Origin: Deltaproteobacteria bacterium
Lineage (GTDB): Bacteria > Desulfobacterota > Desulfobulbia > Desulfobulbales > VMSU01
DNA length: 36,441 nucleotides
NCBI GenBank assembly: GCA_013151175.1
Contig: JAADIV010000143.1
Coordinates: 1 to 36,441, forward strand
Direction: 5' to 3'
Position numbers and translations under genes: made by a program. Shown here in pieces: positions 1 to 18,072 of the stretch (positions are counted from its first letter, which is position 1; each line of letters starts with the position of its first letter). The notes beneath the pieces were generated by a model. The model saw nothing but the letters and a program-made list of their open reading frames with translations. It was not told where the DNA came from and ran no database searches.

Positions 1-10
1 CAGGTTTGTT

Positions 11-121
11 CATTCGGAGTCTACGCTTACCTAGGACTTCGAAGCATACTTTGGTATTCGAGAAGGCCTAGGTAGCGCAGACTCCGAATGGGCGAAGATG
101 GGGTGCTGCTGAATAGTTACC
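11..121. repeat. Intergenic inverted-repeat element, copy 1 (left end probably outside the window)
   Basis: CATTCGGAGTCTACGCTTACCTAGG (11-35) is nearly the reverse complement of CCTAGGTAGCGCAGACTCCGAATG (67-90); ends in GCTGAATAGTTACC (108-121), the inverted form of GGTAACTATTCAGC at 9081 and 13260. Confidence 0.75.
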
Positions 122-8954: not shown

Positions 8955-9107
8955 TAATTATTTAACGCAATGCCCGAAATAGCAATGCTGATCCTGTATC
9001 TGCCCTGCAGCCGCCTGTACATTGTGGTGGGTTCCCTCAGTTGATTGCCCATGCCCCAGTTTAATTTATCCATATCCCATGGTAACTATTCAGCGTAATG
9101 CCTAAAA
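8955..9107. repeat. Degenerate direct copies of the GGTAACTATTCAGC-type end motif
   Basis: TAATTATTTAACGCAATGCCCGAAA (8955-8979) and TAACTATTCAGCGTAATGCCTAAAA (9083-9107) match at 19/25; GGTAACTATTCAGCG at 9081 is identical over 15 nt to the start of the 13260 element. Confidence 0.5.
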
Positions 9108-9194
9108 GTACAGCTCACGAAGCTCATAAAACGGGCTTGGAGTCCTGAGAAGATAGGCTAGCAGGCGGCAAACAAGATGGTGCCATTATCCTAC

Positions 9195-13259: not shown

Positions 13260-13411
13260 GGTAACTATTCAGCGAGGTCTGCAAAACGATGGATTTGTAA
13301 ACAGTCCATCGCTAACTAACGATGGCTAAGTCAGCTAAGCGAAGACTCCGATACTCCCTGTACATAAGGAGGACGAAACGGACAAATTTAGGGTACGGCT
13401 GAGTAGTTACC
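13260..13411. repeat. Intergenic repeat element, copy 2, about 152 bp with terminal inverted repeats
   Basis: GGTAACTATTCAGC (13260-13273) and GCTGAGTAGTTACC (13398-13411) are inverted with 13/14 match; contains the 46-bp block 13350-13395 shared with copy 3. Confidence 0.8.
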
Positions 13412-13460
13412 ACCAGGGGCACCATAATAGCTGATACCCCCATAGTTCAAGAAGAGATAA

Positions 13461-14579
13461 TTATGGCCGTAACTCCTCATGAAACAGCAGCCTGCCATCC
13501 TTGATCTCCATAAGCACAGCATTTTTTGTGGGATCGCCCTGCTTATTGAAATTGAATGTTCCCGTTACACCTTTGTAGTTATGAGTCTGGGCCAGCGCAT
13601 CACGAATCGCTTTAGGGTCAATGGAGTTTGCCCTGACAATAGCATTTTTTAACAGATAAACAGAATCATAGGTCAGGGCCGTGGACGATGATAGTTTTAT
13701 ATTGCCCGCTTTCCTGATCGCAGAGACAAAACGCCGCGACGCCTCACTGGCAACCTTTATGTCCCAATGAGTGGTAAAAAAACCTATCTTAATCATCGCC
13801 AGCCCCTTCTTTTCCACAGATGAATAATCCATACCATCTCCAAAGAGAGGAACCGCCGTAACCCCCATCTTCCTTGCTTGTCTGGCAATAAAAACTGACT
13901 CATCATGACCGGGGATAAAAATCACCTCCGGATGAAGAGATTTAATTACCGCCAACTGTTTCGAAAAATCACGTTGGTCATGCGTGTATTGCTGTTCCGT
14001 TATTATTTTGCCACCCATACGGACAAAATTCTTTGTGAAATAATTGGCCAGGCCGATGGAGTAAACACTCTTGACATCAACCATAATCGCAGCCCGTTTT
14101 GCGTGTAATTCTCCTGTGGCAAAACGCGCCAACACCATGCCTTGAAATGGGTCGGTAAAGCAGCTGCGAAATATATACGAGCCAATTGCGGTCACCTGGG
14201 GATTAGTTGAGTCAGGAGACAACATGACGATCCCGGCGTGCTGTAACACCGGGGCTGACGCCAGAGAGTGGGACGACCACGAATTACCAACAACGGCAAA
14301 CACCCCGTTACTAACCGCTTTCTGAGCCGCCATCCTGGCGCCAATTTGCGTACTATGATTATCGTATTCAAGCAATTTTATTTGCCGGCCAAGCACACCG
14401 CCATTGGCATTTATCTCCTTTACGGCGAAACGAAGGCCGGCAAGATGATCCTTATTAGACCCGGCAGCCTCACCGGTTTTGGCAAAAATAGCGCCAAGCC
14501 TGATATCCGCCGCTCCCCGCGCCGGGATGGCGGAGAAAAGCAGGAGCAGAGAGAGAAAACAGATAATATTTTTAAACAT
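13461..14579 (-). CDS. Periplasmic branched-chain-amino-acid-type (LivK/Peripl_BP_6) ligand-binding protein
   Basis: Signal peptide; IRLGAIFAKTGEAAGSNKDHLAGLRFAVKEINANGGVLGRQIKLLEYDN...ALTYDSVYLLKNAI. Confidence 0.92.
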   Translation of the reverse strand: MFKNIICFLSLLLLFSAIPARGAADIRLGAIFAKTGEAAGSNKDHLAGLRFAVKEINANGGVLGRQIKLLEYDNHSTQIGARMAAQKAVSNGVFAVVGNSWSSHSLASAPVLQHAGIVMLSPDSTNPQVTAIGSYIFRSCFTDPFQGMVLARFATGELHAKRAAIMVDVKSVYSIGLANYFTKNFVRMGGKIITEQQYTHDQRDFSKQLAVIKSLHPEVIFIPGHDESVFIARQARKMGVTAVPLFGDGMDYSSVEKKGLAMIKIGFFTTHWDIKVASEASRRFVSAIRKAGNIKLSSSTALTYDSVYLLKNAIVRANSIDPKAIRDALAQTHNYKGVTGTFNFNKQGDPTKNAVLMEIKDGRLLFHEELRP

Positions 14580-14617
14580 AAAATCCCTTTATTTAAAAAT
14601 TCTACCGCTAAAAAATT

Positions 14618-14805
14618 GGTAACTGTTCAGCGAGGGCTACAAATTGCCATTACCTCGCAACCGTAACTGCTCAGGTAAGCGCAGACTCCGGATGTACCCT
14701 AAATTTGTTTGTTTCGGCCACCTAGTCAGGTAAGCGGAGCGGAGCGAAGACGTCCGTCCGATACTCCCTGTACGTGAGGAGGACGAAACGGACAAATTTA
14801 GGGTA
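14618..14805. repeat. Intergenic repeat element, copy 3, composite, with a long potential hairpin
   Basis: GGTAACTGTTCAGCGAGGGCT at 14618; second end-like motif GTAACTGCTCAG followed by GTAAGCGCAGACTCCGGATG; TACCCTAAATTTGTTTGTTTCG (14695-14716) inverted against CGAAACGGACAAATTTAGGGTA (14784-14805), 20/22; 46-bp block 14760-14805 matches 13350-13395 at 44/46. Confidence 0.8.
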
Positions 14806-16165: not shown

Positions 16166-17545
16166 TCAGAGAATAAAGCGGCTTAAATCCTCATCTTTTG
16201 AGATATCACTAAGCTGTTCAAGTACATATTCAGCGGTAACGGTAAACGTCTTTTCGGTAAGTTCTGGGGCATTAAAGGAAAGATCCTCCAACAGGCGCTC
16301 AAGAATTGTGTGGAGACGGCGGGCGCCGATATTATCGGTTTTCTGATTGACGTGCGCCCCAATACGGGCCATCTCCCGAATGGCCTTATCAGTAAAGTTG
16401 AGGTCAATGCCTTCGGTGGCCATGAGGGCGATATATTGCTTTATCAGGGCATTCTCCGGTTCGGTGAGGATGCGGTAGAACTCTTTTTCCCCTAACGAAT
16501 CAAGTTCTACCCGAATGGGGAAACGCCCCTGCAGCTCAGGAATCAAATCCGAGGGTTTGCAAATATGGAAGGCGCCGCTGGCAATGAACAGAATGTGATC
16601 CGTTTTCACCATACCATATTTTGTATTGACATTTGAACCTTCAACAATGGGCAGCAAATCCCGCTGCACCCCCTCTCTGGAGACCTCACCACCCTGCGCC
16701 CCCTCACTATGGCGGGAAGTAATCTTGTCAATTTCGTCCAGAAAAATAATCCCGGTCTGCTCCGTGCGTCTAACGGCCTTTTGCGTGACAGCCTCATCGT
16801 CAATCAGCTTCTCCGCCTCCTCCGCTGCCAGCACCTGCAGGGCATCCTTAACCCGCAATTTTTTTCTTTTGCTCTTTTTGGGGAACATCCTGCCGAAAAC
16901 GTCCTTGATACCGGAACCCATATCATCCATCCCATCCATCCCGGAATTTGAAAGAACCTCTATCATCGGAATATCTGGCGCCTGACTGACATCTATCTCC
17001 ACCTCTTTAGCCGCCAATTTGCCGTCCCGTAGCATTTGCCGGAACTTCTCTCTGGTGGATGGTGGTGCCGCTGCTTCCGGGGAAGCGGCGGCCACGGCGG
17101 AAGAAGAGTCATAAGACTTGGGCGGCGGCGGTACCAGAATATCAAGCAGCCGCTCCTCGGCCCGCATGGCGGCCTTTTTATCCACCTTTTGCCGCTCCTC
17201 GGCTCGCACCATATTGACGGCCAGACCCGTAAGATCCCGAACCATGGACTCCACATCCCGGCCCACATAACCAACTTCGGTAAATTTAGAGGCCTCAACC
17301 TTCAGAAAAGGTGACTGAGCCAAATTGGCCAGCCGTCTGGCGATCTCCGTCTTACCAACCCCGGTGGGGCCCATCATGATAATATTTTTGGGCGAAATCT
17401 CGTCTTGCAGGGGCTGCTCAACCTGCTGCCGCCGCCAACGGTTTCTAAGCGCTATAGCCACAAATTTTTTGGCATTGTCCTGGCCAATGATATATTTATC
17501 AAGTTCGGCGACAATCTCTTTTGGAGTCAAGGAATGGGCAATCAT
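16166..17545 (-). CDS. hslU: HslU ATPase subunit of the HslVU protease (start [12 protein letters not shown])
   Basis: [50 protein letters not shown]-terminal LSRFIL; ATGA overlap with hslV. Confidence 0.97.
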
Positions 17546-18072
17546 AATTTTTCCAGGGTAAGGTGATGATTTGTATAAATACAGATAGACGCGGCAATAT
17601 CCATGGCCGCCCGGCATATCTCCTCGGCATTCATTTCGGTGTGTTGAATCAGGGCTTTGGCGGCAGCCTGGGCATATGGACCGCCGGAGCCAATGGCCAA
17701 AATACCGTCATCCGCCTCGATCACATCGCCGGTGCCGCTCAGTAACAAGGAACACTCACCATCGGCAGTAACCAAAAAGGCCTCAAGTTTTCTGAGCATC
17801 CTATCGGTGCGCCAGTCCTTGGCCAGCTCAACCGAGCTGCGCAACAGGTTGCCGTTGTACTGCTCCAGTTTAGTCTCCAACCTGGCAAAAAGGGTGAAGG
17901 CATCGGCGGTGGCCCCGGCAAAACCGCAAATGACCTTGCCGTCATACAGCCTTCTAACCTTCTGGGCATTATGTTTCATCACCGTATTGCCCAAAGTTAC
18001 CTGCCCATCGCCGGCCAGAACAACCTCGCCCTTATGCCGTACAGCAATTATTGTCGTTGAATTTATCTTCAT
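17542..18072 (-). CDS. hslV: HslV protease subunit
   Basis: [61 protein letters not shown]. Confidence 0.98.

What the first reader, a model, noticed from the sequence alone, without database searches (positions are those of the whole stretch)
13260..14805. TIR-bounded intergenic repeat family between signalling genes
The 152-bp element at 13260-13411 has 14-bp terminal inverted repeats (GGTAACTATTCAGC / GCTGAGTAGTTACC, 13/14). A 46-bp block inside it (13350-13395) recurs 44/46 at 14760-14805, and the first 27 nt recur with about 4 mismatches at 14618. The 14618 copy also has a second internal end-like motif. The layout suggests a MITE-like or REP/BIME-like mobile repeat, with copies in consecutive gaps of one signalling block. 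No family assignment was possible by reading.
Basis: partly seen in the sequence, partly recalled or inferred. Interest (0 to 1): 0.6.

Follow-up and report, generated by a model that had tools for sequence, protein, structure and literature searches.

The report
Hairpin MITE carrying tiny 17-letter inserts
The repeat is a non-autonomous transposon about 150 bases long, shared by bacteria of the order Desulfobulbales and apparently moved by an IS66-family transposase, and it often carries a 17-base sequence that looks like a separate, even smaller mobile element.

Summary
The 13260-13411 repeat and its 14618 relative belong to a dispersed family with 92 exact ends in this 2.2 Mb genome (0 in the reversed control). 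Complete members are about 152 bp, begin GTAACTATTCAGC, end in its complement, and are flanked by 8-bp target duplications (51 of 97 pairs exact). Intact single-gene IS66-family (ISBst12-type) insertion sequences elsewhere in the order have the same ends and 8-bp duplications. So it is an IS66-type MITE, not REP/BIME. Its anatomy is unusual: three transposon ends (45-nt cap plus 107-nt core), the core being one long hairpin with strong covariation (28 of 41 pairs changed on both sides) and G·U bias on one strand. Both copies in the finding are damaged: one lacks a duplication, the other its right end. Unexpectedly, members carry a 17-nt unit, GGTAAGCGNAGACTCCG (variants of 18-27 nt). It is inserted precisely, mostly after CA, without target duplication, at many positions in this MITE and in unrelated repeats. 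It occurs in 91 of 194 genomes of the order, independently of the MITE. It resembles the cyanobacterial small dispersed repeats but is shorter. What moves it is unknown.

The parts
13261..13410 (+). MITE copy A, rearranged: outer ends present, no intact 8-bp duplication, inner end and left hairpin arm replaced
13261..13273 (+). left terminal inverted repeat GTAACTATTCAGC
   Evidence: same end on intact IS66-family elements
13398..13410 (+). right terminal inverted repeat GCTGAGTAGTTAC
13297..13331 (+). piece of another repeat family, 92% identical to C142:3197-3232
13334..13350 (+). 17-nt module with one mismatch (GCTAAGCGAAGACTCCG)
13351..13397 (+). right arm of the core hairpin, the block shared with copy B
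   Evidence: D1
14619..14805 (+). MITE copy B: cap, inner end, core, with the right terminal repeat missing; abuts the stop codon of the GGDEF gene
14619..14631 (+). left terminal inverted repeat GTAACTGTTCAGC
14663..14673 (+). inner (third) end GTAACTGCTCA, 44 nt downstream of the outer end
14674..14690 (+). 17-nt module GGTAAGCGCAGACTCCG, exact; the homologous site in C186 is empty
   Evidence: listed as L001:2935 against L032
14729..14760 (+). expanded module-like insert GGTAAGCGGAGCGGAGCGAAGACGTCCGTCCG (my reading of the sequence)
1..120 (+). third MITE copy, cut by the contig start, with modules at symmetrical places in both hairpin arms
15..31 (-). 17-nt module GGTAAGCGTAGACTCCG in the left arm
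71..86 (+). module GGTAGCGCAGACTCCG (16 nt, one A lost) in the right arm
9082..9110 (+). cap-only fragment of the MITE

Best explanation
[quoted passage not shown] Shown: complete members start GTAACTATTCAGC, end with its complement, are too short to code for a transposase, and are flanked by exact 8-bp, AT-rich target duplications. Intact IS66-family elements with the same ends and 8-bp duplications exist in the same order. Shown: most members have three ends, an outer end with a 45-nt cap in front of a 107-nt core that begins with its own inner end. The core is one long hairpin kept by compensatory changes, and a core-only copy with a duplication exists. Inferred: the transposase binds the outer pair, or sometimes the inner pair, of ends and inserts the element into AT-rich DNA. 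The hairpin is kept because it forms in RNA or single-stranded DNA of the cap-first strand; the G·U bias points that way. Shown: members carry precise insertions of a 17-27-nt sequence (GGTAAGC...GACTCCG) that also sits in unrelated repeats and varies independently of the MITE. Inferred: that sequence is a second, very small mobile repeat for which MITEs are harmless landing places. The two copies in the finding are old and rearranged.
For: Dispersed family. 8-bp duplications: 51 of 97 end pairs exact and 17 with one mismatch, none at 0-1 mismatches in the shifted control; 7- and 9-bp exact matches 0 and 1 (elements listed). Partner IS with the same ends and duplications: L325, L326, L327, L329, L347, L350-L352, proteins PF03050/NF033517 with DUF6444 in several. 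The published ISBst12-group element ISDge4 has near-identical ends and an 8-bp repeat (PMC12898284). Hairpin: 94.3% of cells paired, 28 of 41 pairs with changes on both sides, 0 of 500 shuffles as high; G·U to A·C 178:17. Module: 42 of 50 empty-site junctions gapless, distribution over genomes.
Against: No intact partner IS was found in this genome, only a fragment; the assembly is fragmentary, so one may be missing or lost. The MITE and the intact IS share the ends but little of the interior. The two copies in the finding lack a duplication or an end. Transposition was not observed. Copying between the hairpin arms could produce part of the covariation without selection for a folded strand.
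Confidence: 0.9

Rival explanations
1. REP/BIME- or REPIN-like repeat moved by a RAYT (Y1, HUH) transposase.
For: Intergenic hairpins in many copies; Y1 transposase genes occur in most genomes of the order (173 of 194).
Against: Exact 8-bp duplications and IS66-type ends; members are about 152 bp. G005 has 122 exact ends but no PF01797 match, though it is 84% complete.
Confidence: 0.03
2. A conserved regulatory RNA or terminator hairpin that spreads by recombination, its resemblance to a transposon being secondary.
For: Strong covariation and one-strand G·U bias.
Against: Exact target duplications show insertion by a transposase. No Rfam family matches the element. This does not exclude that individual copies have been taken into service.
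Confidence: 0.05
3. The 17-nt unit is not mobile by itself but is spread among repeats by homologous recombination or template switching between MITE copies.
For: Symmetrical copies in both arms of one hairpin (window 1-120; L106) suggest copying between arms; modules also occur in forms that lack the hairpin (L286, L288).
Against: Exact insertion at many different positions with unlike flanks, in unrelated repeats and a group II intron, and high numbers in genomes almost without MITEs (G183, G193, G129, G189).
Confidence: 0.25

Closest known systems
IS66 family, ISBst12 group (for example ISDge4 of Deinococcus geothermalis, PMC12898284)
   Same: Ends GTAACT(A/G)(C/T)TCAGC, 8-bp target duplication, single transposase gene in the autonomous partners
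   Different: The element here has no gene, is about 152 bp, has a third inner end and a covarying hairpin core
MITEs in general
   Same: Short, non-coding, terminal inverted repeats, target duplications, many copies, ends shared with an autonomous element
   Different: Cap-plus-core design with three ends kept across many genera; sequence of the arms free to change while pairing is kept
REP/BIME/REPIN repeats with RAYT (PMC3116915)
   Same: Hairpin repeats in many copies between genes
   Different: Target duplications, IS66-type ends, larger size
Small dispersed repeats (SDR) of cyanobacteria (Elhai et al. 2008, doi 10.1101/gr.074336.107; not held, content from memory)
   Same: For the 17-nt unit: tiny, embedded in minitransposons, nested in itself, present through one group of bacteria
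   Different: 17 nt instead of 21-27, unrelated sequence, a different phylum, insertion mostly after CA

Membership tests
MITE of the IS66 family (ISBst12 group) | Terminal inverted repeats beginning GTAA | tested here: met
MITE of the IS66 family (ISBst12 group) | 8-bp target duplication | tested here: met
   51 of 97 exact, control 0; not preserved at the window copies
MITE of the IS66 family (ISBst12 group) | Same ends on an autonomous IS66-family element with a single transposase gene | tested here: met
   in other genomes of the order, not in this assembly
MITE of the IS66 family (ISBst12 group) | Mobilised in trans by that transposase | not testable with these tools
   needs a transposition assay
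REP/BIME/REPIN | No target duplication; short palindrome of about 20-40 bp | tested here: not met
   8-bp duplications, 150-bp elements
REP/BIME/REPIN | Linked RAYT (Y1) transposase in the genome | tested here: inconclusive
   PF01797 in 173 of 194 genomes, but none found in G005 despite 122 ends; linkage to the repeat was not examined
Small dispersed repeats of the Elhai 2008 kind (17-nt module) | Tiny repeat found in diverse contexts, including minitransposons and itself | tested here: met
Small dispersed repeats of the Elhai 2008 kind (17-nt module) | Clean empty sites showing insertion | tested here: met
   42 of 50 gapless
Small dispersed repeats of the Elhai 2008 kind (17-nt module) | Predicted hairpin (reported for three SDR families; from memory) | tested here: inconclusive
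   weak 4-bp hairpin on one strand of the 17-mer (-1.0 kcal/mol), 6 bp in the 24-nt form (-6.3)
Small dispersed repeats of the Elhai 2008 kind (17-nt module) | Same sequence or common descent with the cyanobacterial families | not tested
   the paper and its sequences were not held

The most novel reading that the evidence does not exclude
GGTAAGC-N(3-13)-GACTCCG is an independently spreading family of repeats whose basic unit is exactly 17 nt, which would be smaller than the smallest mobile repeats I know of. It inserts precisely, mostly 3' of CA, without target duplication, by an unidentified mechanism in at least 38 of 62 sampled genera of Desulfobulbales, with MITEs and other repeats as tolerated landing sites.
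Probability: 0.6. Interest if true: 0.75.

Novelty: new member of a known kind. Interest (0 to 1): 0.5.

Why it matters
The MITE family is a common and, as far as I could find, undescribed source of hairpins between genes of Desulfobulbales. It ties to the poorly studied ISBst12 group of IS66, for which a trans-mobilisation assay becomes possible. The 17-nt insert matters more: how DNA units of about 20 nt spread has been open since the cyanobacterial small dispersed repeats. A second, apparently unrelated case with clean empty sites, a target rule and presence/absence across many genomes makes a search for the enzyme testable.

Tried and rejected
REP/RAYT origin: rejected by the 8-bp duplications; genomes with many ends or modules but no PF01797 match (G005: 122 ends, 149 modules; G193: 118 modules) also speak against it, though absence from incomplete MAGs is not proof. 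Canonical IS66 elements (L299) end GTAAGCGACA and are not the partners. Rfam matched no part of the MITE. Module sites are not more structured than random sites in the same loci by folding energy (p = 0.70), so 'prefers hairpins' was dropped; they do avoid reading frames (6 of 36 against 188 of 300, p = 1.4e-7). The module was not searched outside the order. In one search the empty-site BLAST failed on a setting (only its flank counts are used), and let in self-matches; one search replaces both.

Full report
OBSERVATION. The repeat is present as described. The natural borders are 13261-13410, because family members with intact target duplications begin at GTAA. The window is contig C51 of a 2.2 Mb, 236-contig assembly. 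The first copy has 56 BLAST matches in that genome and the second 49. The end GTAACTRTTCAGC occurs 92 times exactly against 0 for the reversed pattern, and 162 times with one mismatch against 3.

ANATOMY. The named records include Desulfosediminicola flagellatus and Desulfogranum marinum, both of the order Desulfobulbales. Others bear names such as Candidatus Desulfobia, Desulfocapsa sp. and Desulfurivibrionaceae, and some are named only to a high rank. The standard member is 150-156 bp. It reads: outer end GTAACTATTCAGC, a 45-nt cap, an inner end GTAACTGTTCAG in the same direction, then a 107-nt core ending GCTGAATAGTTAC. A core-only 107-bp copy (L216) and 51-65-bp deletion forms also have duplications, so the inner end can probably serve as an outer one. 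Of 97 end pairs spaced 140-200 bp, 51 have exact 8-bp flanking duplications and 17 have one mismatch, whereas a shifted-flank control has none at 0-1 mismatches. Exact 7- and 9-bp matches number 0 and 1, so the duplication is 8 bp. The duplications are 77% A+T.

THE TWO COPIES OF THE FINDING. Copy A (13261-13410) has no intact duplication. Its inner end and left hairpin arm are replaced by a piece of another repeat (92% over 35 nt to C142). Copy B (14619-14805) runs from the outer end to the right arm but lacks the right end, stopping at the end of the neighbouring GGDEF gene. Both are old, rearranged copies. Two more pieces are in the window, at 1-120 and 9082-9110.

PARTNER. The own genome has only one short IS66 fragment. 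In another genome, IS66-family remnants have the same ends beside them (L316, L323). A search of 194 genomes of the order with the L316 fragment found intact elements. Their ends are GTAACTATTCAGC or close variants (GTAACTATCCAGC, GTAACTACTCAGCC), with perfect 8-bp duplications: L325, L326, L327, L329, L347, L350, L351, L352. The MITE subfamilies show variants of the ends of the same sort, including GTAACTATCCAGC and GTAACTACTCACC. The partner proteins match PF03050, the four scanned match NCBIfam NF033517, and several have DUF6444; the elements are 1.6-1.73 kb. A published ISBst12-group element, ISDge4, has ends GTGACTACTCAGCA/GTAACTGCTCAGCA, an 8-bp repeat and observed transposition (PMC12898284). 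Filing the family as IS66/ISBst12-type MITEs is therefore supported by tested features; mobilisation itself is inferred.

HAIRPIN. Thirty non-redundant members were chosen and aligned (A1). The consensus fold covers the whole core with 41 pairs. 94.3% of cells pair, 28 pairs have changes on both sides, and none of 500 shuffles or six slid versions comes near. Imperfect pairs are G·U 178 times and A·C 17 times on the cap-first strand; leaving out columns where G·U is commonest, 65 to 14. A DNA inverted repeat with no strand preference should give about equal numbers, so the fold seems to matter in that strand as RNA or single-stranded DNA. Copying between arms may add to the covariation.

THE 17-NT UNIT. 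Inside the members lies GGTAAGCGNAGACTCCG, at different places in different copies. In the own genome it has 31 matches with up to two mismatches against 0 for the control. The ends GGTAAGC and GACTCCG are constant; the middle is 3 nt (GTA, GCA, GAA and others) or 4-13 nt (for example GAGCCTGCGA). When the unit is taken out in a script and the flanks are compared with all held sequences, 50 of 88 sites find a module-free homologue, and in 42 the junction has no gap. So insertion is exact, without target duplication or loss. The base before the unit is A in 85 of 88 sites, with C before that in 64; the base after is A or G in 82. These sites are not all independent, since many lie in related MITEs. 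The unit also lies in unrelated repeats, such as L360 (empty site in L009 of the own genome), L374/L375 and L241, and next to an Rfam group II intron match in L383. It nests inside its own longer form (L122, L167). Head-to-tail copies with a period of exactly 17 (G076, L381) fix the unit length. It occurs exactly in 91 of 194 genomes and 38 of 62 genera of the order, up to 149 copies, with no control hits. It does not follow the MITE: G183 has 107 units and no ends, G193 118 and 1, G189 52 and 0, while G035 has 0 units and 81 ends, G087 0 and 59, G008 0 and 52. Sites avoid reading frames. Y1/RAYT genes do not explain it (none detected in G005 and G193).

COMPARISON AND NOVELTY. The MITE is a new member of a known kind with an unusual three-ended, covarying design. 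The 17-nt unit is closest to the small dispersed repeats of Nostoc (Elhai et al. 2008; the paper is not held, and I rely on memory for its content) in being embedded in minitransposons, nested, and present through one group, but it is shorter and, as far as I know, unrelated in sequence. I found no paper on MITEs in Desulfobulbales, within an open-licence library only.

VERDICT. Observation confirmed; the MITE-like reading is correct and now assigned; the REP/BIME reading is rejected.

Noticed in passing
window 1-120; L106 (C29:8556-8911): Modules sit at symmetrical places in both arms of one MITE hairpin. In L106 about 250 nt lie between them, with an open frame of about 48 codons by eye, perhaps a cargo or a chance ORF.
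   Followed up: partly
L009, L354, L360, L368, L369: A second hairpin repeat family (GATGGCGTCGTAAAAAGTCC...GATGGCTAAG...AAAAA) occurs in several genomes, with and without the 17-nt module; a piece of it is in window copy A.
   Followed up: partly
L024 (C97:1735), L007 (C215:14046): A related hairpin family with ends GTAAGAGTTCAC/GTGAACTATTAC; L024 has an apparent 8-bp duplication AAAAAAGA.
   Followed up: no
L088 (C1), L114 (C39), L168 (C206); window start: Runs of N lie in the hairpin apex of several copies and the window's contig begins inside a copy, so these repeats probably break the assembly and copy counts are lower bounds.
   Followed up: no
L381:1501-1551; G076:C23:154413-154463: Three head-to-tail copies of the 17-nt module, with a single copy at the homologous place in L241.
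   Followed up: partly
L383 around 1501: A 17-nt module directly beside a group II intron D1-D4 match (RF02001).
   Followed up: no
window 16166-18072: AAA ATPase and proteasome-fold (PF00227) genes, probably HslU and HslV, next to the signalling genes.
   Followed up: no
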